Shown: positions 14,661-28,104 of the stretch, piece by piece
Position numbering within the stretch: the first letter of the stretch is position 1
Layout: each line of letters starts with the position of its first letter
Assembly (NCBI GenBank): GCA_027858225.1
Contig: JAQIDB010000005.1
Location: 1-40,082 of the forward strand
DNA from: Candidatus Delongbacteria bacterium
GTDB taxonomy: Bacteria > UBA4055
Reading direction: 5' to 3'
DNA: 40,082 nucleotides
Position numbers and translations under genes: made by a program
The notes under the pieces: model-generated
What the model saw: the letters and a program-made list of their open reading frames with translations, nothing else
Database searches by the model: none
Told to the model about the DNA's origin: nothing

Positions 14661-17261
14661 ATGTTCTTAAGAGGATACATATTCTGGATCTTGATAATAT
14701 CATTTTCTATGTTGGTTGGACAAAGTAAAACTATACAGGGTTCTTCGTATTCAAATCCTGATACAACTATATTTTATTACGCTGAATATGTTGACTTTGA
14801 TAATCTAAACCAGAAAATATATTTAACGGAGAATGCAAAGTTAGAATATAAAAACGTTTCCTTTTCAGCATATCAGATAATTCTCGACATGAAAGAAAAT
14901 ACTGTTTCAGCAATTCAAAAAGAAGATACAGTGTTTTCTAAAATTGAACCAGGTAAGATCGACTCGATCCTCATTAAAGGTAAACCTGCGATCACTGAGA
15001 ATAAAGAGACTATCGAAGGTACATACATGTTATACGACCTTAATACTAAGCAAGGGATCGTTCATAATACCAGAACGGTGATGAATAGTGCCAAGCTGGA
15101 AGATAATACTTTTTTTCATACCGAGAGTATGATAAAGCTGGATAATGATGATATCCACGGTACAAATGCTATTATTTCAAGCTGTAATCTGGATCATCCA
15201 CATTACTATTTTAAAGCAGACAGTGTTATAGTCACAAAAGATAACTGGGTCTATGCCAAACCAATATCCTTATATTTTGCCAGTGTTCCTGTAGCCTGGT
15301 TTCCATATATTTTATACAAGAAAAACAAAGGCCGTAACTCGGGTTTTATTTTGCCCTCATACTATTACAGTAGCACAAAGGGTAATAGTTTTAAGCATCT
15401 GGGATATTTCTGGGATATGTCAGATTATACAGATTATACAGTAATGGCTGATTTTTATGATAATTACGGGTATTTGATAAATCAAACATTCAGATATAAG
15501 AATAGGTACACTATTAAAGGTCACATTAATGCAGATCTTACAAATGACTATGAGAGTATGGATTTTAGGCTTAGGGGAACGCATCATCATCAAATTACCC
15601 CGACAATGTCACTGAATGGAGTAGCTGACTATATCACTAAAACATCTCTCATCAGAGATCTCGGAGAGACAAGCTATGATCGAATGCAAAATAAGCTTAC
15701 ATCGAGTGGACAGTTCAACAAAAGATGGAGAAATACTGGAGATAATTTATCAATAATGTCATCCTATACCCAGTATGTAGATACGGCAATTGTAAAATAT
15801 CAATTCCCATCTCTAAATTTCAGTTTAAGCGGAAGAAAACCCTTCTCCGATTTCGATGCCCCATCGATGATAAAAAAATTCCAGATAAGTGGAAATTTAA
15901 AATCGGCTAGGAGTGTAGACATATATGATGATATGAATGTTTTTACAGATAATACAAATTCTAGCATAGGATTGACAGAGACTACGAGTCTTGGGGATTT
16001 CAAAGTTGGATCAAATCAGAGTTTCGTTGCGAAAAATTATAAAGATGTTCATTATTATGAATACGAAGTTGGTGATGAGGTCAATTACCAAAATACTGAT
16101 TCAATCTATGAAGATTATGGTTTTAAGACAGCATCGTATTTGCAGTATAATCATACATTATTTCGTCATATAAGTATTCGTGAATCGTTTAATTATAGGC
16201 ATGATGTTGCCTTTAAATATTACGATTCAGATTTAAATGTAATAAATGGCAACCTGTCAAGGTCAACTTATAGTACAAGTATTTCTGCGAATACAAGTAT
16301 CTACGGGATTTTTCAACCTGAGATATTTGCTCTAAAAAAAATAAGGCATACAATTTCCCCAGCGATATCAATGTCATATAATCCTGATTTCTCAAAGGAT
16401 AAGTACGGTTACTTTTTAACAGATAGTGCAGGAACGAAAACAGATATATTTTCTCCTTCAATGATCGGAAGTACTCCTAGTAATGAATCTGCGACATTAA
16501 ATTATTCTTTGAAAAATATCATGGATGCTAAGATACTATATGGAGAAAATGAGATTTCAAAAAAATTATTCAATGTTGATATGAGTGGATCTTATAATTT
16601 TGTAGCTGATAGTAATAAAATGTCAGTTATAAATACCAGATTCTATTCGACGTTATATAATGGTAATTTGTTCGTGGATAATTTCCGGTTAACTGTAAAT
16701 GTTAATGCTTCAGCTGTAACTACTCCTTATGATGGAGATGGTCGCACAGGAGATTATATTAATCCAAATTTTGATTTTTGGAATAAAAATCCTTTCAGGA
16801 CAGAAAGCTGGAGCGCGAATTATTCAGCAGGAGTACCTATCAACTTCAAAGGAATATTCTCAAAGGATATAAATCTATTCCAAGAAAGTGAACCGGAGTT
16901 AGATATTATCCCTCTTAGTAATAATAATTTCACAAGTATGTCGTACGATATTTCAGGTAATCTGAGTTTTTCAGAGAATTACAATTCAGAAGATTACTAC
17001 TCTAAAAATTTTTATATGAACCTTTCTGGTAAGATTAAGCCAACAAAAAACTGGCTTATAGAATATACCTCAACAATAAATTTCTTGACTCCAAGAAAAT
17101 TAACTTCAACCAGGATCAAGATAAGAAGAGAGATGCATTGCTGGCAGGGAGAATTTGAGTGGGATATGTTCTCGAAGGGATTTAAATTATTGATAAACAC
17201 GAAAAGCAGCATCTTTTCGGATATTAAATTTGATAAGGATACGAGAGTACGTAAGTGGTAA
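14661..17261 (+). CDS. lptD: LptD-family LPS-assembly outer-membrane protein
   Basis: An 866-residue exported protein. A signal peptide (about 1-21, ending SMLVGQ) is followed by an OstA/LptA-like periplasmic jellyroll domain (about 35-190; ENAKLEYKNVSFSAYQIILDMKENTVSA and DTKQGIVHNTRT-like strands) with the classic pair of strands that receives LPS from the periplasmic bridge. The rest (about 200-866) is rich in aromatic residues and alternating strands, as in the 26-strand LptD barrel, including VPVAWFPYILYKKNKGRNSG. It inserts LPS into the outer leaflet, normally plugged by LptE, which is not seen here. GGAG (14653-14656) serves the ATG. Similarity is by layout and motifs, as LptD sequences diverge strongly. 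Confidence 0.88.
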   Translation: MFLRGYIFWILIISFSMLVGQSKTIQGSSYSNPDTTIFYYAEYVDFDNLNQKIYLTENAKLEYKNVSFSAYQIILDMKENTVSAIQKEDTVFSKIEPGKIDSILIKGKPAITENKETIEGTYMLYDLNTKQGIVHNTRTVMNSAKLEDNTFFHTESMIKLDNDDIHGTNAIISSCNLDHPHYYFKADSVIVTKDNWVYAKPISLYFASVPVAWFPYILYKKNKGRNSGFILPSYYYSSTKGNSFKHLGYFWDMSDYTDYTVMADFYDNYGYLINQTFRYKNRYTIKGHINADLTNDYESMDFRLRGTHHHQITPTMSLNGVADYITKTSLIRDLGETSYDRMQNKLTSSGQFNKRWRNTGDNLSIMSSYTQYVDTAIVKYQFPSLNFSLSGRKPFSDFDAPSMIKKFQISGNLKSARSVDIYDDMNVFTDNTNSSIGLTETTSLGDFKVGSNQSFVAKNYKDVHYYEYEVGDEVNYQNTDSIYEDYGFKTASYLQYNHTLFRHISIRESFNYRHDVAFKYYDSDLNVINGNLSRSTYSTSISANTSIYGIFQPEIFALKKIRHTISPAISMSYNPDFSKDKYGYFLTDSAGTKTDIFSPSMIGSTPSNESATLNYSLKNIMDAKILYGENEISKKLFNVDMSGSYNFVADSNKMSVINTRFYSTLYNGNLFVDNFRLTVNVNASAVTTPYDGDGRTGDYINPNFDFWNKNPFRTESWSANYSAGVPINFKGIFSKDINLFQESEPELDIIPLSNNNFTSMSYDISGNLSFSENYNSEDYYSKNFYMNLSGKIKPTKNWLIEYTSTINFLTPRKLTSTRIKIRREMHCWQGEFEWDMFSKGFKLLINTKSSIFSDIKFDKDTRVRKW

Positions 17262-17264
17262 CCT

Positions 17265-17290
17265 GTAGGGGACGGTTTCTAACCGTACCT
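17265..17290 (+). repeat. REP-like palindrome beginning with GTAG (copy 1)
   Basis: GTAG (17265-17268) is followed by an imperfect palindrome with core ACGGTT (17272-17277) / AACCGT (17281-17286), loop TCT, and an outer GG/CC pair (17269-17270 with 17288-17289). REP sequences mobilised by RAYT (REP-associated tyrosine transposases) typically start with GTAG or GGAG and fold like this. It lies between lptD and the HTH-TPR gene, 10 nt before the ATG. Confidence 0.6.
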
Positions 17291-17300
17291 CTTTAAAATT

Positions 17301-19091
17301 ATGGAAGAAAAACAGTTAAAATACCCACCTGAATTTAAGATGGAAGTAGCAGGGCTGGCATTAAAATCCGGAGTGACTTCCGCTTCTGTCAAACACGACT
17401 TGCACAGAAGCACAGTGAACAATTGGTTGAGCAGATATAGAAAAAACGGTTTCAACGGATTTACGGTTACTAGAAATGATACTCAAGCAGTAAAACTAGA
17501 TAGAACTACAATAGATAAAATTTATAATTTTAAGAAATCAAATCCCAAAGCAACTTTAAATGATATAAAAAATCATTTTGGACTTGATTGTCATATATCA
17601 TTGGTAGGAAGGAAGTTGAATAAGTTCGATGGTAAGAATAGTTCAAGAGTTGCGAATGATCATAGTTTACTGATTCCTGTATTGAATAAGGCTAATAGAA
17701 AGTTTTTACATGAGAGCTTAAATGAGATTAAGAATTCAGGTGATGTTAGTTTTAATTTACATGATTATAGCAGTGCGTTGGCAGAATACAAAAAAGTTTA
17801 CAAAGTATTATCTAGCACAGAATATTTTTCAGATAAATTGATGATAGATGTTTTGTATTCAAAATCTAAGGTCTATTTCATGAAAGGTGATGATCAGACG
17901 GCTTTATTATTGTTAAGAGATGCCCTTAAGAACTCAGTGAATGAATATAATTATCTGGAAAAAGCGAAATGTCGCATGCTTCTCGGTAGTATCTTTGTTA
18001 AATTTCATGATATTAATAAAGTAGAAAAAAATTATTCAGCAGTTAAAAAAATATTAAAAGGTAAAAGTGATGTTCTCTCACTTTATTTCTATTATAGAGC
18101 TGAATATACATTGAAAATTTTAACAAAGGATTATGATCAAGCTTCTGAAGTAAGTATACTCTATATTTACTACGCATATAAGACCAAAGATTATGAAATT
18201 ATTGGAAATATGCTTGGTGGAGCTTTTATACATTTGTATTACACTGGCAGATATGAAGAATATGCTAAAACTTTGTATAAATCTAAGCACTATAATTTAA
18301 AAAATAACAGCTCTTATAATGTGTCTATGAATATCTTAGATCTGTTAAATGTTCATGGGTATGGTATTATATGGAATGAAAGTGAAATTTGGGATTTAAG
18401 GAAAGAGTTATTAAAATATTCTACGAAATTAAAATGCTCTTCACTTGTACCAAAAAGTGATTATAGTATAGGTATAAAATATTATAGAAAAGGTAAATAT
18501 GAAGAAGCGCTTAAATTCTTTGAAAAATCGTATAATTATATAAAATATTGTGGAAGTATAGAGCTTTTCCTTTCCTGCTTGTATTATTATGGTATTGCTC
18601 TTTTAAAGATTGGAGAGTTATCGAAAAGCCTGAGAAAAGTAAATTTACTTCACAGAGAGTCATTAAAAGTAAAAAATGATGAATATATATATTTATCAAT
18701 TCAATCTTTAACAGTCATATACTTAAGAAAATGTAATTTAAAGCAAGCTGTCAGATTTTGTAAGAAAACCATACAAACTGCTTATCAAAGAAAAGATTTT
18801 TATATTTTGGGTAAATTTTATTATTACCTTGGTGTTCTTAAGCAAAAACAATCAAATACACCAAAAACTGATTATTATTTTTCAGAATCGATAAAATTTT
18901 ATCAATTATTCAAAGAAAAAACAGGAAAAGATGTTTCAAGAGATATTGAAGTAGTTAATGTTAGTAAGAGTAGTGGAATTGATGAGTATAACGATATATG
19001 TAAAATTTTAACACATAATATTGTACAAAATAAGTATATAAATACACATACCCGTTTCTTTTTTTATTTTTTGCTCTTAGATTTATTATAG
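17301..19091 (+). CDS. Transposase-type HTH fused to TPR-like helical repeats
   Basis: A 596-residue protein. Residues 1-55 resemble the DNA-binding part of IS3/IS630-type transposases (PPEFKMEVAGLALKSGVTSASVKHDLHR..TVNNWLSRYRKNG). Residues about 68-110 look like a second HTH (IDKIYNFKKSNPKATLNDIKNHFG). There is no DDE catalytic domain. From about 140 onward are helical repeats in TPR style, clearest at about 395-430 (YSIGIKYYRKGKYEEALKFFEKSY). The last residues (FFFYFLLLDLL) are hydrophobic. A domesticated transposase HTH joined to a protein-binding or signal-sensing scaffold would suit a regulator; this is inference. No clear ribosome-binding site is visible, and a REP-like palindrome lies just upstream. 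It precedes the surface-protein cluster. Confidence 0.8.
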   Translation: MEEKQLKYPPEFKMEVAGLALKSGVTSASVKHDLHRSTVNNWLSRYRKNGFNGFTVTRNDTQAVKLDRTTIDKIYNFKKSNPKATLNDIKNHFGLDCHISLVGRKLNKFDGKNSSRVANDHSLLIPVLNKANRKFLHESLNEIKNSGDVSFNLHDYSSALAEYKKVYKVLSSTEYFSDKLMIDVLYSKSKVYFMKGDDQTALLLLRDALKNSVNEYNYLEKAKCRMLLGSIFVKFHDINKVEKNYSAVKKILKGKSDVLSLYFYYRAEYTLKILTKDYDQASEVSILYIYYAYKTKDYEIIGNMLGGAFIHLYYTGRYEEYAKTLYKSKHYNLKNNSSYNVSMNILDLLNVHGYGIIWNESEIWDLRKELLKYSTKLKCSSLVPKSDYSIGIKYYRKGKYEEALKFFEKSYNYIKYCGSIELFLSCLYYYGIALLKIGELSKSLRKVNLLHRESLKVKNDEYIYLSIQSLTVIYLRKCNLKQAVRFCKKTIQTAYQRKDFYILGKFYYYLGVLKQKQSNTPKTDYYFSESIKFYQLFKEKTGKDVSRDIEVVNVSKSSGIDEYNDICKILTHNIVQNKYINTHTRFFFYFLLLDLL

Positions 19092-19123
19092 AGAATAAAA
19101 ACGTAAATATTGGAGAAAAGGGC

Positions 19124-21244
19124 ATGAAGAAGTTTACAATGTGGCTGATTTTAGCATTAGTGTTAAGTTTGTTTGGTCAAACAGCAGAGGGAATAAGTAA
19201 TGAAGAAGAAAGCAAAGACGAGAAAAAGAGAGCAATTAGTTACCAAAGCCTTATTAAAAATAATGAAGGACAATTGATTGAAGATGGAAAGTATAATATC
19301 AATTTCAATCTTTATTCTGCTGAAAACGATGAAGAACCTGTTTGGTTTGAAAATCAGAATGTTGTAATCAAAGATGGTGTTCTGAATGCGTTAGTTGGCA
19401 GTAATAAAAAATTACAACCTGAGCTTTTCAAAGATCAACTATGGCTTACAATTGAATTAAACGAAGAAGAATCAGAAATGCAATATATTGCAGCTACTTC
19501 TTATAGTATGTATGCAAATAGACTTGACCCTGATGCTCTTGTTGCAGGTGACAGAGTTGCTTTAGAAGAATTACCAAATGGAAAGATAAGAATAGATATT
19601 GACGGACCACCAAATAATCCGGTGATGTACATTAGCAGTCTTATTTTTTATGGTGAAGATACTGATGGTAAATATAAATACTTAACAATGAATAGTGATT
19701 CTGATACTCCAATTGGTTCTTTTATGCACAACACCGGTGATCTTTTGTATCAGGGTGGAGATGACTTTGAGGATTTTGTTGTTTGTGCAAATGATGGAAG
19801 AGATTTAGTATTAAAATCAGATCCGAATTCTTTAGGAGTAACAGGAAAAGTATATGTTGGTACAAAAGCAAAGACTAACGACTTAAGCATTAGTGGAAAA
19901 CTAATAGCAAATAATATTACTTCAGTTTTAGGGGGTAATATTTATATTGAGTCAATAGTTACAAATACAATCCCCATTGACGATGTAGAATCCGTTACTA
20001 GATCTGGTGGTAATGTATATGTAGGTACTACTGAAAACACGAATAATTTGATAGTTAATGGATCAATTTATGCGAGCAAAATTAATGCAGATGTCAAACT
20101 TGACAATCTTGTTTTAGGAACCATTGCTGATGAATATGAGTATTTATCAGTTAATAATATTTATAGTCAATCCATCGGATCATTTTTGTGGAATAAAAGC
20201 TCCCCTTCATACAAAGTTGGTGATGATTTTGAAGATTTTGTTATAAGTGCTAAAGATGGTCGTGATCTTGTATTAATGGCAGAAGAAGGTGAATTTGGAT
20301 TAGATAGAAAAGTATCAATTGGAACTGAGACTTTACCTAATGATTTATATGTTACAGGGGATCTTGCTGTAACTGCAACGACTTCTAAGTTTCTGAAATT
20401 AGGATTACATGATGAAGGAGTTAACGGCACATATGATATAATGAAAATTCGAAACAATGCGGACGAAGAAATTGGTGCTTTTATGTATAACGAATCTCTG
20501 GAAAATTTTCAAGGTGGTTTAGATGGAAATGATTTTGTTGTTTATGCAAGGGATGGAAGAGATTTAGTTTTAAAATCAGTAGGCGGTAGTGTTTTTGTAG
20601 GTGGAAAAACTGAATCTAACGATTTATTTGTAACAGGCAATTTAACTGTTGATGGAGTAACCAATATTGGTGCAACTAATTTAACAGATATTGAAGTAGA
20701 TGATATTAAATTTGGTCATATTGATGATGAGGGTTATGAATATACAAGAATGATCAATCAGGATGATGAATATATTGGTGGTTTTATGTATAATACTGAC
20801 ATACATAATGATACAAATCCAGATGATCAAATTGATGGTTTCGAAGTTTATTCACAGGTAGGTAAAGATTTAGTATTAAGAGCAGCAAATGATGGATATA
20901 CACGAAGTAATGTGTTTGTAGGTAGTAGAAACAATAAAAATGATTTGTATGTTTGTGGTACTTTAACAGCCGAAGAAATTAATGTTAAGGCTTACGCATG
21001 GGCTGATTATGTTTTCAGAGATGATTATGATTTACTTTCCCTTTCTGAAGTTGAAGATCATATAAATTCATATGGCTATTTACCAGGTATGCCATCTGAG
21101 AAAGAAGTTGTTGAGAATGGTTTAAATATCAATGATATGCAATTGAAGCTTGCAGAGAAAATTGAGGAATTAACTTTACATATGATCCGTCTTGAAAAAG
21201 AGAATAAAGAGTTAAGAAACAAGATTGATTCTGTTATCCAATAA
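19124..21244 (+). CDS. Exported repeat protein with coiled-coil tail (FCB-type surface adhesin or fibre-like)
   Basis: A 706-residue exported protein. A signal peptide (about 1-21) leads to a domain typical of this phylum group (about 34-130, beginning AISYQSLIKNNEGQLIEDG). Then come four repeats of about 90-100 residues, each with IG.F, an acidic DDFEDF-like turn and DGRDLVL (residues 224, 378, 477 and a degenerate VGKDLVL at 579), ending VYVGT...NDL.V.G.L. A fifth copy around residues 300-320 keeps only the tail part. The C-terminus (about 620-706) has WADYVFRDDYDLLSLSEVE...YLPGMPS and a coiled coil, a module often found at the end of Bacteroidota surface proteins. Probably a trimeric or fibrous surface protein; ligand unknown. 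GGAG sits 12 nt upstream of the ATG. Confidence 0.82.
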   Translation: MKKFTMWLILALVLSLFGQTAEGISNEEESKDEKKRAISYQSLIKNNEGQLIEDGKYNINFNLYSAENDEEPVWFENQNVVIKDGVLNALVGSNKKLQPELFKDQLWLTIELNEEESEMQYIAATSYSMYANRLDPDALVAGDRVALEELPNGKIRIDIDGPPNNPVMYISSLIFYGEDTDGKYKYLTMNSDSDTPIGSFMHNTGDLLYQGGDDFEDFVVCANDGRDLVLKSDPNSLGVTGKVYVGTKAKTNDLSISGKLIANNITSVLGGNIYIESIVTNTIPIDDVESVTRSGGNVYVGTTENTNNLIVNGSIYASKINADVKLDNLVLGTIADEYEYLSVNNIYSQSIGSFLWNKSSPSYKVGDDFEDFVISAKDGRDLVLMAEEGEFGLDRKVSIGTETLPNDLYVTGDLAVTATTSKFLKLGLHDEGVNGTYDIMKIRNNADEEIGAFMYNESLENFQGGLDGNDFVVYARDGRDLVLKSVGGSVFVGGKTESNDLFVTGNLTVDGVTNIGATNLTDIEVDDIKFGHIDDEGYEYTRMINQDDEYIGGFMYNTDIHNDTNPDDQIDGFEVYSQVGKDLVLRAANDGYTRSNVFVGSRNNKNDLYVCGTLTAEEINVKAYAWADYVFRDDYDLLSLSEVEDHINSYGYLPGMPSEKEVVENGLNINDMQLKLAEKIEELTLHMIRLEKENKELRNKIDSVIQ

Positions 21245-21265
21245 ACTTAAACGAGGATTTTAAAT

Positions 21266-21724
21266 ATGAAGAAAATTTATATATTAGTTTTCATTATGAG
21301 TATTTTTTCTCTGAATTGTTATGGGTTTACATTCAGATCATCAATTGGGCAATCTGTAATAGGAGAAACTTCACTTGGAGAAGATACAGTCAAATCGGGT
21401 GTTATTTATTTAGATAACAGCGAATCAAAATCAAAGAATGGTGTTACTGAGAATATTCCTTATGAATTTGGGCTTGAGCAAAATTACCCGAATCCTTTTA
21501 ATCCTACTACGACAATTCAATTTTCTTTACCTGAAGACCAGTTCGTATCTTTGAAAGTATACAATGTTCTAGGTGCAGAAGTTGTTGAGCTTGCAGGTAA
21601 GGATTTTACTAAAGGAGTTCATAAAGTGAATTTTAATGCAAATAAATGTGTTTCCGGGTTGTATTTTTATAGAATGCAGACTAAAGGATTCAGTAATATA
21701 AAAAAAATGATGATAGTTAAATAG
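21266..21724 (+). CDS. Small secreted protein with type IX secretion C-terminal sorting domain
   Basis: A 152-residue protein: signal peptide (about 1-20), a short domain of the SIGQSVIGETSLGEDTVKSG kind (about 25-50) seen before sorting domains in related bacteria, then a type A T9SS CTD (about 66-152) with LEQNYPNPFNPTT and the closing KVYNVLGAEVVEL...VSGLYFYRMQTKG..NIKKMMIVK. The CTD targets passenger proteins through the type IX secretion system, after which they are cleaved and fixed to the surface or released. Almost no passenger remains, so it may be a short surface peptide or a remnant of a longer one. It starts 21 nt after the repeat protein and is probably in its operon. Confidence 0.9.
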   Translation: MKKIYILVFIMSIFSLNCYGFTFRSSIGQSVIGETSLGEDTVKSGVIYLDNSESKSKNGVTENIPYEFGLEQNYPNPFNPTTTIQFSLPEDQFVSLKVYNVLGAEVVELAGKDFTKGVHKVNFNANKCVSGLYFYRMQTKGFSNIKKMMIVK

Positions 21725-21733
21725 GGGGTGTAT

Positions 21734-24106
21734 ATGAAAAAAAACATTTTGATAAGTATAGCCTTTTTTGTTCTGTTATCACAGACAGTATTTTCTAGGG
21801 ATTGGGAAGAAATAGAACCAACATTAATAAATGATAACTTGGTTTTTAATTTCGATTTGTCTACAGATGATTACAATGCAAAAGCAATTGATGATGTGGG
21901 CGATTATATAGCTAGAGATATTACAATAAATTATACTTGTGAAATAAAAAACTTAAGATTTACTTCTCCTCATCCACACAGTGAAGTAAATACATATCCT
22001 AGGGTCTGGATTCGTTTTTACTATGATCATGAATCAGGGGAATCTATACCAATATATTCACATAGCTTTTCTTCGGGTGATGATGATGTGAATTTAAGTG
22101 GAACAATAATTATACCTCATTCAATAGAAACAGGTAGCCGAGAATATTTTGGAGCAAATAGGTTTTGTTTGGAAATGGTAAGGAGTTACTGCGATTATGA
22201 AGGTTGCGTGTTAAATCAACAGATTAATTCAAAAAAATTCGACTACTACTTGCTTAATGATACTGCAGATAAATTTTATGCAGACAATCTAGATCAATCA
22301 ATCCAATTAGTAGATCAGCTTAAGCAATCCAACATATTAGCTAAGTGGGCACAGACAACTGGCTATAATACAATTACCACTGGAATGGTGATGGTAGAAG
22401 GATTTGACCCACAAAACAACAACTTCCCTGCATGGTATTATAACGCTGGTAAAGACCTTCTAGATGAATGTCGAAGTAGAAACAGAGATGTATATATTTT
22501 AGACTTTGCAGAAGGGGGAAACACAATTGCAACTTCGAAAAACACTATCGATGATTGTGCATATATAATTTCTGCAGGTGAATACGAAGATATTGTTGAA
22601 TACGGTAATGCTAGTGTTGTACAAGATGCAACAAGATTCATTTCAAGCACGTTACATTCTAGGAGAAGCGTTGTTTTAGCTGGAACAAGCATGGGAGGAG
22701 TAGTTAGCCGATATGCTCTTGCAGCAGCTGAACAAGTTGGCCAGACACTGCCAGTATCACATTTTCTATCAATAGATTCCCCTCAGCAATATGCAACTAT
22801 TGATTACCAGCTAATGGATTTTGTTTATACACAGCCCAAAAAGGATATTGTACTTGAAAATAGTTATGATTATAACGATTTACCATATGGAGAGAGACCT
22901 TCAATACTTTCATATCGTGCGACACTCGAATTGCTCTGGAATAATCCTGCAAGCCATTATTATGTTGGTGGAGAATATAAGACAGAGTCAATATCAAGAC
23001 CTTCGAAAGAACATTTAATTTTTTACAAACAATTAAATGAATTAAATGGTGAACATAAAGGATACCCTAGTAATTGCAGAAATTTAGGCGTAGCTTTCAG
23101 TAAGTTCCATGGTTTTAATGAAGTATCTCAGGGGTATACTTGGTTAGAGTTAAATATTGCAGCAGCAGGTAAGTTTGAATTTGATTATACTTTTGGTTCA
23201 TTTTCAGAAGACTTTTCCTTCAATCAATCAACTGCCATAGGTGGTACTGCTTTGAACAAACGTACTCTCTTTACAGGCAGTAAATTACCATTATCATATA
23301 CAAATACTGACGTGTTTTCTAGTAATGATAATTTAAATTCTTCTATGCTGTGTAATATGCTTTCGTTTGATGCTGATTATGTTATAGCTATAACTACTCA
23401 GACATTAGATCAACCAACATTTATTCCTTTTGCAAGTGCATTGGATCTTTATAATCAAGATTCAGGTCTCTTATATCCTTTTTCGAAGTATCTAGTAGAT
23501 GGTTTTTATCTAGATGATACTGATAATAGTTTTTATTTTTCATTCATGGATGAAAATTATTTTACTGATGTAGGTGCAGGTACTATCCCGTACAATGAAT
23601 ACAAAAAAGTTCGTTCACGGTTTGATCAAATAGCTTTCCTAAATCGTAATGGGAACCATGATGAATTTCCTGAAGAAATTACTAATCCAGTTCTTGATTT
23701 CATTGAAGATAAAGTTACTGAGGATATATCTACATGGAATAATACTTGGAAAAATCGTGCTGTACTAACTAAGGATATAAATATCGAAAGTGGAAATACA
23801 TTGTACATAGAAAACGGGATCAATAATTCTATTAAGATTGAAAATGATCATGGTATGTTTGAGATCGTAACTACTATTTTAGTGAAGGAAGGAGCAGAAG
23901 TAGTCATTGAAGATGATACAACTTTATATCTCACTGATAGTGCTTACTTTGTTTTCGAACAAGGTTCAACATTAACCTTGGGGGATAATTGCGTCATCAA
24001 TTTAGGAAATATGAGCCACTTTGTAATTAATGAAGGTGTAACATTTAATAAAGGAGAATCATATAAAATTGAAAGTGGACCAAGTGCATTGTTTAATTGG
24101 AAATAA
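21734..24106 (+). CDS. Secreted alpha/beta-hydrolase (lipase/esterase-like) with beta-helical C-terminus
   Basis: A 790-residue exported protein. The signal peptide is KKNILISIAFFVLLSQTVFS. The middle part is an alpha/beta-hydrolase: VVLAGTSMGGVVSRYALAAA carries the G-x-S-x-G nucleophile elbow (Ser319), with the PVSHFLSIDSPQQYA strand that usually follows. Lipases and esterases of the PGAP1-like or GPI-inositol-deacylase type show this pattern. From about residue 650 the protein becomes repetitive beta (DINIESGNTLYIENG..., GAEVVIEDDTTLYL), like a beta-helix cap. The start is ATG 21734, with GGGGG at 21724-21728; a GTG two codons earlier is possible. No T9SS domain of its own. The gene lies 9 nt after the sorting-domain protein. 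Confidence 0.78.
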   Translation: MKKNILISIAFFVLLSQTVFSRDWEEIEPTLINDNLVFNFDLSTDDYNAKAIDDVGDYIARDITINYTCEIKNLRFTSPHPHSEVNTYPRVWIRFYYDHESGESIPIYSHSFSSGDDDVNLSGTIIIPHSIETGSREYFGANRFCLEMVRSYCDYEGCVLNQQINSKKFDYYLLNDTADKFYADNLDQSIQLVDQLKQSNILAKWAQTTGYNTITTGMVMVEGFDPQNNNFPAWYYNAGKDLLDECRSRNRDVYILDFAEGGNTIATSKNTIDDCAYIISAGEYEDIVEYGNASVVQDATRFISSTLHSRRSVVLAGTSMGGVVSRYALAAAEQVGQTLPVSHFLSIDSPQQYATIDYQLMDFVYTQPKKDIVLENSYDYNDLPYGERPSILSYRATLELLWNNPASHYYVGGEYKTESISRPSKEHLIFYKQLNELNGEHKGYPSNCRNLGVAFSKFHGFNEVSQGYTWLELNIAAAGKFEFDYTFGSFSEDFSFNQSTAIGGTALNKRTLFTGSKLPLSYTNTDVFSSNDNLNSSMLCNMLSFDADYVIAITTQTLDQPTFIPFASALDLYNQDSGLLYPFSKYLVDGFYLDDTDNSFYFSFMDENYFTDVGAGTIPYNEYKKVRSRFDQIAFLNRNGNHDEFPEEITNPVLDFIEDKVTEDISTWNNTWKNRAVLTKDINIESGNTLYIENGINNSIKIENDHGMFEIVTTILVKEGAEVVIEDDTTLYLTDSAYFVFEQGSTLTLGDNCVINLGNMSHFVINEGVTFNKGESYKIESGPSALFNWK

Positions 24107-24135
24107 TTGACATTTGTACCATTAAATACGATATT
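24107..24135 (+). promoter_or_regulatory. Putative sigma-70-type promoter ahead of the beta-barrel gene
   Basis: TTGACA (24107-24112) and GATATT (24130-24135) are separated by 17 nt. The first base follows directly on the stop codon of the lipase gene. This suggests that the downstream genes can be transcribed separately. Confidence 0.5.
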
Positions 24136-24180
24136 GAAGCAATTAGACATGAAAAAAATAAAAAAACTAATAATTGCTTC
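24136..24180. repeat. Perfect 10-bp inverted repeat downstream of the promoter
   Basis: GAAGCAATTA (24136-24145) and TAATTGCTTC (24171-24180) are exact reverse complements separated by 25 nt. The repeat starts right after the -10 box. There is no T tract after it, so a terminator is unlikely; an operator or a 5'-leader hairpin are the alternatives. Confidence 0.6.
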
Positions 24181-24232
24181 ATTATACGTAGTTAAGTATC
24201 TTGTAAAAATAGAATAATACGGAAAAAGTTTA

Positions 24233-25015
24233 ATGAAATATTCCTACACGAAATCGAGAGTGAGCAAGTATATAATTGTTCTTATTTTTATATGTATAAA
24301 CTTTTTGTATTCTGACGAGAATGTCCCTTATCAATCTAAAGTTATAGCTGGAATTAAAGGCGGATTGAATTATGCAAATTTCACTGGGGATGATGCTGAT
24401 GTTTACAACCCAGAGTCTATCAAAGGGATGACTTTAGGTGGATTTCTAGATTTCAGTCTTAATAAATATTTATCAGTGCAAATTGAAGCGAACTACCTTG
24501 AAAAAGGTTCTGAAGGTTTTGAAGATTTTTATGAATCCTATGAATCTGAATCTTATTGGCATCCGGGATATTATTTCAAAGAAAAAGTGATATTTTCTTA
24601 CAAATTGAAATATATTGAGCTACCTATTTTAATTAAATATCATACAATGGAATTTTATAAAATAAGTCCGAACTTATATTGTGGTTTGTCTGCTGCTGTA
24701 AACATTGAAGCAAAAATGAATGTGCAAGATGGTGGAATCTCTGAGTTCCTAGATGTAGTTGAAGAGGAACAGGAAATAAATGATTTGATTAGAGATGTAG
24801 AATATAATGCTATTTTTGGATTGGGTTTCAATTATGTGATTAATAAATTTAAAATTTTTCTTGATCTCAGATATAATATAGGATTAGTAGAGATCTACGA
24901 AGAAAATGAATCAGATTTTAAAAACTCTGCATTCACCACTATTGTAGGATTTGGCTATATATTAAATCCTGTGAAAAGATCTTCTAGCAGAATTCCAAAA
25001 AGAGGTTATAAATAA
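24233..25015 (+). CDS. Outer-membrane beta-barrel protein (porin-family, PorT/OmpW-like)
   Basis: A 260-residue exported protein. After a signal peptide (cleavage around residue 28) it begins with AGIKGGLNYANFTGDD and then GMTLGGFLDFSLNKYLSVQIEANYLEKG, a signature of small outer-membrane barrels common in Bacteroidota (OMP_b-brl families). It has alternating strands ending in SAFTTIVGFGYIL. An acidic stretch around 175-195 (VVEEEQEINDLIRDVE) probably forms a loop. The first beta-helix lipoprotein gene follows after 31 nt. Function as pore or adhesin is not decidable from sequence. Confidence 0.85.
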   Translation: MKYSYTKSRVSKYIIVLIFICINFLYSDENVPYQSKVIAGIKGGLNYANFTGDDADVYNPESIKGMTLGGFLDFSLNKYLSVQIEANYLEKGSEGFEDFYESYESESYWHPGYYFKEKVIFSYKLKYIELPILIKYHTMEFYKISPNLYCGLSAAVNIEAKMNVQDGGISEFLDVVEEEQEINDLIRDVEYNAIFGLGFNYVINKFKIFLDLRYNIGLVEIYEENESDFKNSAFTTIVGFGYILNPVKRSSSRIPKRGYK

Positions 25016-25046
25016 ATTGTTACATTTTTCGAAAGGATTAAATTTA

Positions 25047-26564
25047 ATGAAAATAGAAAAAACAGTGTATAAAGCGATTTTACTTTTATTAATGGTGTTA
25101 TTGTTTAATTGTGAAAAGAATAATATAACTGAACCGACAATTTATGAGGAGATCATTTGGAAAAAAAGTGACTCTCCAATACTAATCGATAGTTGTTTTG
25201 TTGTTCCTGAAAATACAGTTTTAAAAATTGAGAGTGGTGTTGAAGTTAAATTTAAAGCTTCCAGCCGAGGTACTGATTCTCCTGATTATGATTATAATAA
25301 TTTAAATGTAGGTATGATCAAAGTAGATGGAAGGATCGAAGCGATTGGTGCTGAAAATGACTCAATAATTTTTACAAGGCAAGGTATTTTAGGCAGCTGG
25401 GGTGTGATATTTATTAACAAAACATCTATTGATGAAAATATATTCAAATACTGTAAGATAGAATATGGAAATCAGATAAAAAATTTCATTTATGAATCTG
25501 AAGGTTATTCACGAGGTGCTATTTCATGTTTTTATTCAAATGCTGATATAGACAGTTGTAATATTACGAAGAATGAGTCAAACGGCATTTTATGTTATTC
25601 AGGAAATGCTGATATAAGAAATAGCAGCATTGAGGGTAATACAAAGAATGGAATTCTTTTGGTTTTTTCAAATAGTATAATAGAGAATAACAGTATCATT
25701 TACAATGGTGAAGATTACAATTATTATGTGAAATATAGTGGTGTTTACTGTAATGAATCTGATCCTGAAATTATAAATAATGTATTTGAAAACAATTTTA
25801 CTTTCACTGTTTATCCCAGCCATGATGTTTATAAATCAGGTCACGGAATCGGAATAGTATGTGAGTTCTCAAATCCGATAATCGAAGATAATATCTTTAA
25901 TAACAATGAATACGGGATTGAATGTATAAGCAATTCAAATGCGGGTATTACAAATAATATCTTCAATCGTAGTTTTATTAGTATTATAAGTGAAATTAAC
26001 TCAGATATGAAAATTAAAAATAATATTATTTCCGATAGTTATGTAGGCATTAACTTGGAAACAAATTCAAGGTTAGTAAATAATTTGATTGTAAATTGTG
26101 AATATGGAATAACCTGTAGTAATGGTCGTGAATTTAATACATATCCGGAATTTATTAATAATACAATTCTAAATTGTAATTTATATGGTATTGAGATGTA
26201 TGGGCGTAATTATTCCAGTTCAGAAATAGATTATTACCCAAGCCCTAAAATAATAAATAGTATCATTTATGGTTCGGAATTCAAGGACCTTCAAATCTCT
26301 ATTAATGACAGTACATATTCTGGACCTAAAATATCCTATTCATTGATAGGGGATGACTCACTCCACTTTCAGATTCAGGATTTAGGGAGTAACATTATTA
26401 ATAAAGATCCATTACTGGATGAGAATTTTAAACCGCTGTCAAATTCACCTTGTATTGATGTAGGTAATATTAATGTTCAAAATTTACCAGAGACTGATTT
26501 AGATGGAAATAATAGAGTTAACGGTATGACAATTGATATCGGAGCTTATGAATTTGGGAATTGA
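25047..26564 (+). CDS. Right-handed parallel beta-helix lipoprotein (paralogue 1)
   Basis: A 505-residue lipoprotein (lipobox LLFNC, Cys about residue 22). Start taken at ATG 25047, with AAAGGA (25032-25037) upstream. After an N-terminal module (EIIWKKSDSPILIDSCFVVPENTVLKIESGVEVKFKA) it consists of short repeating beta-helix coils with many Asn residues (NGILCYSGNADIRNSSIEGN..., IINNVFENN, ...NIFNNNEYGIECISNSNAGI), as in carbohydrate-active and adhesin beta-helices. The end, SPCIDVGN..LPETDLDGNNRVNG..IDIGAYEFG, is the conserved cap. It is a close paralogue of the following gene, in tandem. The stop is TGA, and the downstream gene follows after 17 nt. Possible polysaccharide-binding or lyase activity; no catalytic residues recognised. 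Confidence 0.85.
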   Translation: MKIEKTVYKAILLLLMVLLFNCEKNNITEPTIYEEIIWKKSDSPILIDSCFVVPENTVLKIESGVEVKFKASSRGTDSPDYDYNNLNVGMIKVDGRIEAIGAENDSIIFTRQGILGSWGVIFINKTSIDENIFKYCKIEYGNQIKNFIYESEGYSRGAISCFYSNADIDSCNITKNESNGILCYSGNADIRNSSIEGNTKNGILLVFSNSIIENNSIIYNGEDYNYYVKYSGVYCNESDPEIINNVFENNFTFTVYPSHDVYKSGHGIGIVCEFSNPIIEDNIFNNNEYGIECISNSNAGITNNIFNRSFISIISEINSDMKIKNNIISDSYVGINLETNSRLVNNLIVNCEYGITCSNGREFNTYPEFINNTILNCNLYGIEMYGRNYSSSEIDYYPSPKIINSIIYGSEFKDLQISINDSTYSGPKISYSLIGDDSLHFQIQDLGSNIINKDPLLDENFKPLSNSPCIDVGNINVQNLPETDLDGNNRVNGMTIDIGAYEFGN

Positions 26565-26581
26565 AAAGAGGAATTAAAAAA

Positions 26582-27919
26582 ATGAAATATATTGTTTCAA
26601 TATTATTATTAAGTTTCAGTATTTTAATAGTATTAAGTTGCTCAGCTGATAGCCCGACAGAAGATGAGTCAAAAGAAATCTACTGGTATAAAAGTGATTC
26701 ACCCATTCTTATTGAAGGTTGTTATATAGTTCCTGAAAACACAACTTTAACAATTGAAGCAGGTACAGAGATCCGATTTAAATCAAAATCTAAGAAAGAC
26801 TTTGATTATACAGAAATAAAAACTGGTATGTTGGTTATACAGGGAATGATCATTGCAGAAGGTACAGAACAAGATTCTATCATTTTTACAAAAGATGACT
26901 CTGTAGAAAACTGGGGTGCGATTGTATTTGAAGAATCCGCTGATCCAAATAGTATTTTAAAATATTGTAAAATTCAGTATTGCAGCGAAGTTGAAGATTA
27001 TCAGTACACGATACTAGGTGCAATCACATTTTTGGCATTTTCAAAAGCAAATGTTGAAAATTGTAATATTACTGACAGCTATTATGGGATCCAATGTAAT
27101 GGTTATGCTGAACCTAATATAATTGGATGTGCAATAAGTAATTGTGTAAACGGTATTTACAGTTACTTATGTCGTTCTAATATCAGGAATTGTACAATAA
27201 AAAATAACGGGGCTAATGGGATTTATGGCTATATGAGCTATTTGTCCCTTAAAAATAGCATTATCAGTAATAATGGCCGTGATGGTATTGCTATAGAGAA
27301 CGGTTCTTATCCGGATATAATAAATAATGTTATTGAATATAATGGATATGCCGGGATAGACTGTTACGAAGAATGCGCCCCGAATATAGAAAATAATCTT
27401 ATCATGAATAATTTAGAAACAGGTATGCTATTTAATTATTACTGCTTACCTAATATTGTTAATAATTTAATTGCTGGTAGTATCAAGGGGATCCATTTGG
27501 CAAATTGGTCAGATGCGAATATAATAAACAATACTGTTACTGGTAATGATTTTGCTTTTAGATTATATGGTGACTGTACTCCGCAAATAATCAATACGAT
27601 TGTTTGGGATAATATAGAAGTAATTGATCCTCTTGAAGATCATTACTATTACTATAACAGTAACCCTATATTATTTTCCTCTCTTATCCAGGGCGATTCA
27701 CTTCATTATTCAATCACAGATCAGGGTGATAATATTATTGGTATTGATCCGTTGTTTATTGACGATAGTCTTGATTTTAACTTACAAAGCAGCTCACCAT
27801 GTATAGAGTCAGGATTTAACGACATTGTAGAACTGCCAGAATTTGATTTATTAGGCAATCCGAGAATTGTTGGTGGGTTAATCGACATTGGAGCTTATGA
27901 ATATCAAGGTAGTAGATAA
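26582..27919 (+). CDS. Right-handed parallel beta-helix lipoprotein (paralogue 2)
   Basis: A 445-residue lipoprotein (lipobox IVLSC) with the same architecture as its upstream neighbour: first module EIYWYKSDSPILIEGCYIVPENTTLTIEAG, central beta-helix coils rich in Asn (NCTIKNNGANGIYGYMS..., NNVIEYNGYAGIDCYEECAPNIENNLIMN) and the same SPCIESGFND..LPEFDLLGNPRIVGG.IDIGAYEY cap. Start taken at ATG 26582 with AGAGGA at 26567-26572; an earlier TTG (26561) overlaps the previous stop. Gene duplication is clear from the shared start and end modules. It closes the cluster, with a strong terminator just behind. Confidence 0.85.
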   Translation: MKYIVSILLLSFSILIVLSCSADSPTEDESKEIYWYKSDSPILIEGCYIVPENTTLTIEAGTEIRFKSKSKKDFDYTEIKTGMLVIQGMIIAEGTEQDSIIFTKDDSVENWGAIVFEESADPNSILKYCKIQYCSEVEDYQYTILGAITFLAFSKANVENCNITDSYYGIQCNGYAEPNIIGCAISNCVNGIYSYLCRSNIRNCTIKNNGANGIYGYMSYLSLKNSIISNNGRDGIAIENGSYPDIINNVIEYNGYAGIDCYEECAPNIENNLIMNNLETGMLFNYYCLPNIVNNLIAGSIKGIHLANWSDANIINNTVTGNDFAFRLYGDCTPQIINTIVWDNIEVIDPLEDHYYYYNSNPILFSSLIQGDSLHYSITDQGDNIIGIDPLFIDDSLDFNLQSSSPCIESGFNDIVELPEFDLLGNPRIVGGLIDIGAYEYQGSR

Positions 27920-27942
27920 AAAAGAATATGAATTCTCCTTTA

Positions 27943-27970
27943 AAAGTCGCTTTCAAGCGACTTTTTTTAT
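27943..27970 (+). terminator. Rho-independent terminator closing the surface-protein cluster
   Basis: AAAGTCGCT (27943-27951) pairs exactly with AGCGACTTT (27956-27964) around loop TTCA, followed by a T run to about 27968. It ends the transcript of the two beta-helix lipoprotein genes. Confidence 0.93.
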
Positions 27971-28022
27971 TTCGTTTACTATTTTAGTTATATTTTTTAT
28001 CTTATCAAAGGTGAAAAGACAG

Positions 28023-28049
28023 ATCCTGTCCCGAATTATCGGGAAGGAT
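28023..28049. repeat. Bulged inverted repeat next to REP-like copy 2
   Basis: TCCCGA (28029-28034) pairs with TCGGGA (28039-28044) around ATTA, extended outward by ATCC (28023-28026) / GGAT (28046-28049) across a small bulge. It directly precedes the GTAG element, as if the two belong to one unit. Confidence 0.55.
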
Positions 28050-28055
28050 GACACC

Positions 28056-28081
28056 GTAGGGTCAAACCCAAGTGTTCGACC
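28056..28081 (+). repeat. REP-like palindrome beginning with GTAG (copy 2)
   Basis: GTAG (28056-28059) is followed by GGTCAAAC (28060-28067), a 6-nt loop and GTTCGACC (28074-28081); the arms pair over 8 positions with one mismatch. The same GTAG-plus-foldback layout as copy 1 at 17265, but with a different stem sequence. It lies 23 nt before the SelB start codon. Confidence 0.6.
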
Positions 28082-28104
28082 GGAAGGGAAATAAAGGAAA
28101 ACAA

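What the first reader, a model, noticed from the sequence alone, without database searches (positions are those of the whole stretch)
17301..19091. Domesticated transposase-like HTH fused to TPR repeats, without a catalytic domain
The first 110 residues look like two DNA-binding HTH units of an IS element transposase, but no DDE domain follows; instead there are about 450 residues of TPR-like helices. This is either a repurposed transposase head acting as a regulator or an unusual anti-element protein. The close REP-like palindrome could be its binding site.
Basis: partly seen in the sequence, partly recalled or inferred. Interest (0 to 1): 0.55.

Follow-up and report, generated by a model that had tools for sequence, protein, structure and literature searches.

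The report
Transposase-derived regulator fused to TPR repeats
This gene is a cut-down member of a protein family, so far seen only in one little-known bacterial phylum, in which the DNA-gripping head of a jumping-gene enzyme is joined to a peptide-binding type of repeat domain; most of its sister genes are followed by a gene for a small exported peptide, which hints at a peptide-controlled switch, although the usual peptide importers are missing.

Summary
ORF 17301-19091 (596 aa) has two HTH units like the head of IS481 transposases, then about 410 residues of TPR superhelix, and no DDE domain. It is not a lone oddity: all 13 held genomes of its phylum (Candidatus Delongbacteria) have relatives, none of 85 others does. 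Most relatives keep a domain between HTH and TPR with integrase-like order of strands and helices but without the catalytic aspartates; the window copy lost it. New here: relatives with that domain are followed by a 53-61 aa ORF with a Sec-like signal, a Shine-Dalgarno site and a W.W..W.Y.G..PPPP tail: 17 copies in 10 of 13 genomes, 0 of 373 outside; 16 lie behind a family gene, one is untestable. The TPR fold matches LGN and also the peptide receptors NprR and Rap. The family so resembles a receptor-propeptide pair with a transposase-derived head. Against that: Opp, PTR2 and OPT importers are absent from all peptide-bearing genomes, and the receptors exceed the RRNPP size range. The window gene itself has no peptide: best read as an orphan, reduced regulator in a 10.8-kb insertion between lptD and selB. 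The REP palindrome is a dispersed repeat, not its private site.

The parts
17301..19091 (+). HTH-TPR gene (596 aa), IS481-head-derived TPR regulator without the middle domain
17328..17459 (+). HTH unit 1 (residues 10-53, three helices)
   Evidence: Pfam HTH_23/28 residues 24-53; helices H10-23, H25-32, H36-53
17502..17627 (+). HTH unit 2 (residues 68-109, three helices)
   Evidence: IS481 model residues 14-101/105; helices H68-80, H86-93, H99-109
17628..17687 (+). junction where relatives carry the ~175-aa integrase-like middle domain; low-confidence linker here
   Evidence: alignment gap; pLDDT < 50 at residues 109-131
17688..18923 (+). TPR superhelix (residues 130-541)
   Evidence: TPR_12, TPR_2 above cut-off; LGN Z about 25, NprR Z 21.6, Rap Z 17-19
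18981..19088 (+). C-terminal tail (residues 561-596) with hydrophobic end, weakly similar to the tail of L044, the other relative without the middle domain
   Evidence: 8 of 2000 shuffles reach the score; pLDDT < 50 at 560-596
17268..17289 (.). REP-like palindrome at the lptD 3' end; dispersed repeat of the genus
17290..28104 (.). ~10.8-kb stretch between lptD and selB, absent at this site in G001, G002 and several other relatives; holds the HTH-TPR gene and secreted-protein genes
   Evidence: synteny; left junction inside the REP arm; third-position G+C 0.19-0.24 against 0.30 in the two flanking genes
19124..21244 (+). secreted surface-type protein 32 nt downstream; a homologue also follows a family gene and its peptide in G010:C122

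Best explanation
The gene encodes a cytoplasmic regulator built from the bipartite HTH head of an IS481-type transposase and a peptide-binding type of TPR superhelix. It belongs to a family restricted, as far as searched, to Candidatus Delongbacteria. The typical member is HTH - integrase-like domain without catalytic aspartates - TPR, and its gene is followed by a small gene for a Sec-exported peptide; the TPR groove most likely binds that peptide (or its precursor), and binding changes what the head does on DNA. The window copy is a derived, reduced member: it lost the middle domain, has no peptide gene beside it, and stands in a 10.8-kb insertion with genes for secreted surface proteins. 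It most likely acts as an orphan DNA-binding TPR regulator, perhaps of its own island, perhaps answering to the peptide made at another locus of the same genome (G000:C60). Shown by sequence: the domains, the phylum-wide family, the loss, the peptide pairing in relatives, the insertion. Inferred: DNA binding, peptide binding, regulation, targets.
For: Head is IS481-like: NCBIfam IS481 8.6e-6 in the window protein, up to 1.2e-17 in relatives; tblastn of a relative's head finds named IS481 transposases on plasmids; profile-profile of HTH+middle against four IS481-type transposases 98.1%, E 8e-14, running into the first strands of the DDE domain. Middle domain of relatives: predicted order b-b-b-a-b-a-b; D at the first catalytic position in 2 of 35 rows with a residue there, at the second in 0 of 37. 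Family in 13 of 13 genomes of the phylum, 0 of 85 outside. Window copy nested, sister to the middle-bearing L038, support 100/98: a loss. Peptide: 17 copies in 10 of 13 genomes, 0 of 373 outside; 16 of 17 behind a family gene, one cut by a contig end; Shine-Dalgarno-like site before all 14 first found; purifying selection in the one close pair (dN 0.034, dS 0.32). TPR fold: LGN Z 25, NprR Z 21.6, RapI Z 21.1.
Against: The window gene itself has no peptide gene: none behind it, and none among 733 open frames of 25 or more codons in the window by the peptide profile. The three peptide-importer families tested (SBP_bac_5, PTR2, OPT) are missing from all 10 peptide-bearing genomes; SBP_bac_5 occurs only in G004 and G007, which lack the peptide. 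TPR superhelices of this kind bind many partners; LGN, not Rap or NprR, is the best structural match. The middle domain alone matches no transposase model or profile significantly, so its descent rests on register and order of elements. There is no DNA-binding or expression evidence. Without a close orthologue, selection on the window gene could not be measured; it could be decaying.
Confidence: 0.55

Rival explanations
1. Peptide and TPR protein are a secretion monitor, not cell-cell signalling: the cytoplasmic TPR domain binds the un-exported propeptide, so the regulator reads how busy or blocked the export route is, and controls secreted-protein genes. No import is needed.
For: Peptide importers of three families are absent from peptide-bearing genomes. 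Secreted proteins lie near several family genes: L036, L044, L095 and the window. Receptors have no signal-like start; peptides do.
Against: No direct evidence for binding of the precursor; not every family gene has secreted-protein neighbours; other importer families were not tested.
Confidence: 0.2
2. The window ORF is a decaying, non-functional remnant of a full-length receptor after deletion of the middle domain and loss of the peptide gene.
For: Nested among full-length members with an end branch of 1.06; no Shine-Dalgarno site; peptide gene missing.
Against: The frame is open over 596 codons and folds with moderate to good confidence; weak or missing Shine-Dalgarno sites are common in the family (17 starts listed; at most L039, L046 and L047 show a short AAGG); a second reduced member, L044, is open too.
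Confidence: 0.2
3. The peptide is a regulated product, not a ligand: a secreted bacteriocin-like or surface peptide whose gene is simply the nearest target of the HTH protein.
For: The peptide lies downstream on the same strand in all 16 testable cases with good ribosome sites.
Against: Three HTH-less receptors (L094, L095, L097), and L155, a C-terminal fragment like L097, keep the peptide gene although the first three have no DNA-binding head.
Confidence: 0.2
4. Part of a still mobile IS481-type element.
For: IS481-like head.
Against: No catalytic domain; no terminal inverted repeats bracketing the gene; three partial matches elsewhere in its own genome, all divergent paralogues.
Confidence: 0.03

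Closest known systems
IS481 family transposases
   Same: Two HTH units at the N-terminus in the same register; in relatives the first strands of the integrase domain align in order
   Different: Catalytic aspartates lost in relatives, whole domain lost in the window copy; TPR body added; no terminal inverted repeats
RRNPP peptide receptors (NprR, PlcR, Rap)
   Same: Cytoplasmic protein with or without HTH head plus TPR superhelix and, in relatives, an adjacent small exported-peptide gene
   Different: Head is IS481-like, extra middle domain, receptors 616-742 aa, diderm phylum, Opp-type importer missing, peptide of 53-61 aa with Trp motif and Pro-rich tail; window copy has no peptide
LGN/Pins-type TPR superhelix
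   Same: Closest solved fold of the TPR part, Z about 25
   Different: Eukaryotic cell-polarity scaffold, no DNA-binding head

Membership tests
RRNPP quorum-sensing pair (signature of PMC10075063) | propeptide of 10-100 aa | tested here: not met
   Window gene: no peptide within 900 nt downstream, none in the window by profile. Family relatives: met, 53-61 aa
RRNPP quorum-sensing pair (signature of PMC10075063) | propeptide exported by Sec | tested here: inconclusive
   Relatives only: basic start, hydrophobic stretch and small residues at -3/-1 read by eye in 14 of 14; SignalP not available
RRNPP quorum-sensing pair (signature of PMC10075063) | receptor of about 250-500 aa | tested here: not met
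   596 aa in the window; complete peptide-bearing relatives about 616-742 aa
RRNPP quorum-sensing pair (signature of PMC10075063) | receptor carries TPRs | tested here: met
RRNPP quorum-sensing pair (signature of PMC10075063) | receptor and propeptide genes are direct neighbours (-60 to 400 bp) | tested here: not met
   Window: no peptide. Relatives: met, peptide ORF begins +29 to +217 after the receptor stop
RRNPP quorum-sensing pair (signature of PMC10075063) | re-import of the peptide (Opp as usual route: recalled) | tested here: not met
   SBP_bac_5 in 0 of 10 peptide-bearing genomes, PTR2 0 of 13, OPT 0 of 13; other importers not tested
IS481 transposase | bipartite HTH head | tested here: met
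IS481 transposase | DDE catalytic domain | tested here: not met
   absent in the window protein; first two aspartates lost in relatives
IS481 transposase | terminal inverted repeats around the gene | tested here: not met
   none of the 7 inverted repeats of 14 nt or more in 17200-19200 brackets the gene
TPR protein | tandem antiparallel helix pairs matching TPR models | tested here: met
Known anti-phage defence protein | match to PADLOC models | tested here: inconclusive
   no hit for the window protein; absence from a library is not disproof

The most novel reading that the evidence does not exclude
Delongbacteria run a phylum-specific peptide signalling family in which a tamed IS481 transposase became the receptor: its HTH head binds DNA, its dead integrase domain acts as hinge or dimer part, and an added TPR groove reads a small Trp/Pro-rich exported peptide encoded next door. 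It arose independently of the Firmicutes RRNPP heads, exists in HTH-bearing and HTH-less forms as NprR and Rap do, and works without the Opp importer. The window gene is an orphan receptor of this network that has shed the integrase domain.
Probability: 0.35. Interest if true: 0.85.

Novelty: new variant of a known kind. Interest (0 to 1): 0.6.

Why it matters
If the pairing is functional, it is a peptide-sensing system in an uncultured diderm phylum, with a DNA-binding head taken from a transposase rather than from the usual XRE-type regulators. It would show a second origin of receptor-propeptide pairs built on the same TPR fold, give a clear case of a bacterial transposase turned into a family of regulators with stepwise loss of the catalytic domain, and raise a testable question: how does a cytoplasmic TPR receptor meet an exported peptide in cells that lack the known oligopeptide importers?

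Tried and rejected
REP palindrome as the gene's own operator: rejected, a dispersed repeat already present at lptD in G002. tRNA-linked insertion: suspected from translated upstream DNA; ARAGORN on 26 sources found one tRNA only, a tRNA-Glu in L048 downstream of its family gene. Anti-phage system: no PADLOC hit for the window protein. Homology of the middle domain alone to DDE transposases: not significant against five DDE transposases of the same genomes or four IS481-type ones (P 0.18), nor in NCBIfam or Pfam; no integrase appeared in the fold rows, which test residues 335-718 only. Single origin of the two reduced members (window and L044): marginally rejected, p-AU 0.038 with a long branch in play, while their tails are weakly alike, so undecided. 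Receptor-peptide distance correlation is significant (r 0.44, p 1.5e-4; TPR against mature part r 0.33, p 0.003), but shared descent alone gives this, so it is not counted as proof of binding. Viral contigs: no relative found. Genome-contig scans: none with the window protein; five loci with A4, of which L115 (39% over 47 residues, Brevibacterium) I take as a bare HTH match.

Rows left out of counts: peptide presence was judged on receptors with enough downstream DNA; nine core contigs end too soon (L034, L035, L038, L041, L043, L045, L047, L058, L099; L099 not scanned further). Middle-bearing core receptors without a peptide: L046 and L098; L096 keeps only a peptide tail beside a run of N. 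L149 repeats L037 and was counted once. A weak 18th peptide match (E 0.009, G001:C41) inside a 920-codon frame was dropped.

Literature: of 3 papers holding Delongbacteria and quorum sensing, none is about such a system by title and abstract start; IS481 with tetratricopeptide, 3 listings, none on a fusion by title and abstract start; RRNPP listings; domesticated transposase; Delongbacteria genomes, 5 listings. I read passages of PMC10075063 only; all others were seen as search listings.

Full report
What is there. The ORF at 17301-19091 encodes 596 residues. Its first 110 residues match HTH models and the N-terminus of the IS481 transposase model, each below the curated cut-off. TPR models pass their cut-offs further on. 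AlphaFold with a five-row alignment gives two three-helix units at 10-53 and 68-109 and a TPR superhelix at 130-541, mean pLDDT 75.6.

The family. The window is the whole contig C47 of a 2.42-Mb, 79%-complete genome. Of 98 genomes searched with the protein, 13 match: all 13 of its own family, 0 of 85 others. With an alignment of 15 members, 13 of 13 genomes of the phylum match. Named records of relatives' contigs place the phylum as Candidatus Delongbacteria. Most relatives are about 667-890 aa and carry about 145-240 residues between HTH and TPR. A second group lacks the HTH (L094, L095, L096, L097). A third, the window protein and L044, lacks the middle domain. In a tree of 28 members the window protein is sister to L038, a middle-bearing member (100/98), so the loss is derived.

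The middle domain. AlphaFold of a full-length relative gives strands 121-130, 141-148, 153-159, helix 164-181, strand 189-192, helix 199-210, strand 213-216 (block pLDDT about 44-79 in this part), the order of integrase-type domains (recalled). Profile comparison of HTH plus middle (32 rows) with four IS481-type transposases gives 98.1% and runs from the head through the first three strands and helix. The middle alone is not significant. In the resulting register the first catalytic position is D in 2 of 35 rows with a residue there, the second in 0 of 37; the third was not assigned. I read it as an inactivated integrase domain: likely, not proven.

The peptide. Directly downstream of 14 family genes lies an ORF of 53-61 aa with a signal-peptide-like start, a Shine-Dalgarno-like site and a tail W.W..(G)W.Y.G..P-rich. 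A profile of these 14 finds 17 strong matches (E 1.8e-16 or better) in 10 of 13 genomes and none in 373 genomes of other families (386 searched). Of the three not used for the profile, two lie behind a family gene and one lies 210 nt from a contig end; so 16 of 17 are behind a family gene and one is untestable. Among middle-bearing core receptors with enough downstream DNA, 16 have the peptide, one has a remnant beside a run of N (L096), and two lack it (L046, L098). The two without middle domain lack it (0 of 2), as do the distant members listed and all of G004 and G007. One close pair shows dN 0.034 and dS 0.32. Receptor starts mostly lack Shine-Dalgarno sites (17 listed); peptide starts have them (14 of 14).

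The TPR fold. Best solved matches are LGN/Pins (Z about 25), then, among many TPR proteins, NprR (Z 21.6 for both models), RapI (Z 21.1) and Rap-pheromone complexes (Z 17-19). By sequence profile Rap3T matches at 5e-11 and NprR at 4e-7, LGN at about 1e-12. This fits peptide binding and does not prove it.

Against the signalling reading. The oligopeptide-binding protein family SBP_bac_5 is present only in G004 and G007, which have relatives but no peptide; G012 has neither. PTR2 and OPT importers are absent from all 13. Missing genome parts are unlikely to explain ten absences (inference). So if the peptide acts from outside it uses another importer; or it acts before export.

The locus. In G001, G002, G006 and G008 lptD and selB are neighbours, in G005 and G011 one small ORF lies between; in G010 other secreted-protein genes follow lptD and selB is not in the stretch held, and in G007 the order differs. 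In the window 10.8 kb lies between them. The left junction is inside the REP-like palindrome, shared with G002 up to AACCGT. The insert carries the HTH-TPR gene, a surface-type protein (19124-21244), a protein with a type IX sorting tail, an outer-membrane barrel and beta-helix proteins. Homologues of the surface gene and its neighbours also occur without an HTH-TPR gene in G011:C124, G003:C25 and G007:C222, and the surface gene follows a full-length receptor plus peptide in G010:C122.

How it most likely works. Shown: domains, loss, family, pairing, insertion. Inferred: the head binds DNA; the TPR groove binds a peptide, in most relatives the one encoded next door; binding alters DNA binding; the window copy is an orphan reduced regulator, perhaps of the secreted-protein genes behind it. 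I put 0.55 on this and 0.35 on the bolder claim of a phylum-specific peptide signalling network.

Membership. It is not an IS481 transposase (catalytic domain and terminal repeats not met) and is not filed as RRNPP (size, adjacent peptide for this copy, and importer not met), though relatives meet four of the five published layout criteria if the signal peptides are accepted (passages of PMC10075063). It works, at most, like an RRNPP receptor.

Noticed in passing
L032:7463-7645 (G000:C60:21468-21644 by profile): The window's own genome holds one full receptor-peptide pair, on another contig.
   Followed up: yes
G004 and G007 against the ten peptide-bearing genomes: SBP_bac_5 peptide-binding proteins (3 and 11 matches) occur only in the two genomes that have distant relatives but no peptide.
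   Followed up: partly
downstream of receptors in L094, L095, L096, L097, L098, L032, L046: A ~110-aa protein family (GAVAV...NPG.F.K) follows the receptor/peptide genes; two members scanned have no Pfam match.
   Followed up: partly
L097, L099: HTH-less receptor directly behind what look like pstB and phoU (names recalled from the sequences), in G005 and G009.
   Followed up: no
L032:8401-8865, L046, L050: CheY-like response regulators (PF00072 in L032; the others by eye) lie downstream of family genes.
   Followed up: no
window 17268-17289 and dispersed sites in G000, G001, G002: REP-like palindrome family GGGGACGGTTNNNAACCGTCCC at 8, 13 and 20 forward places in three genomes of the genus; mobilising enzyme not sought.
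   Followed up: partly
L033:2157-3696: Small HTH gene followed by HipA-like frames (names recalled) next to a divergent family member.
   Followed up: no
L098 against L096 (both G010): Two closely similar HTH-less receptors in one genome, one of which has no peptide gene.
   Followed up: partly
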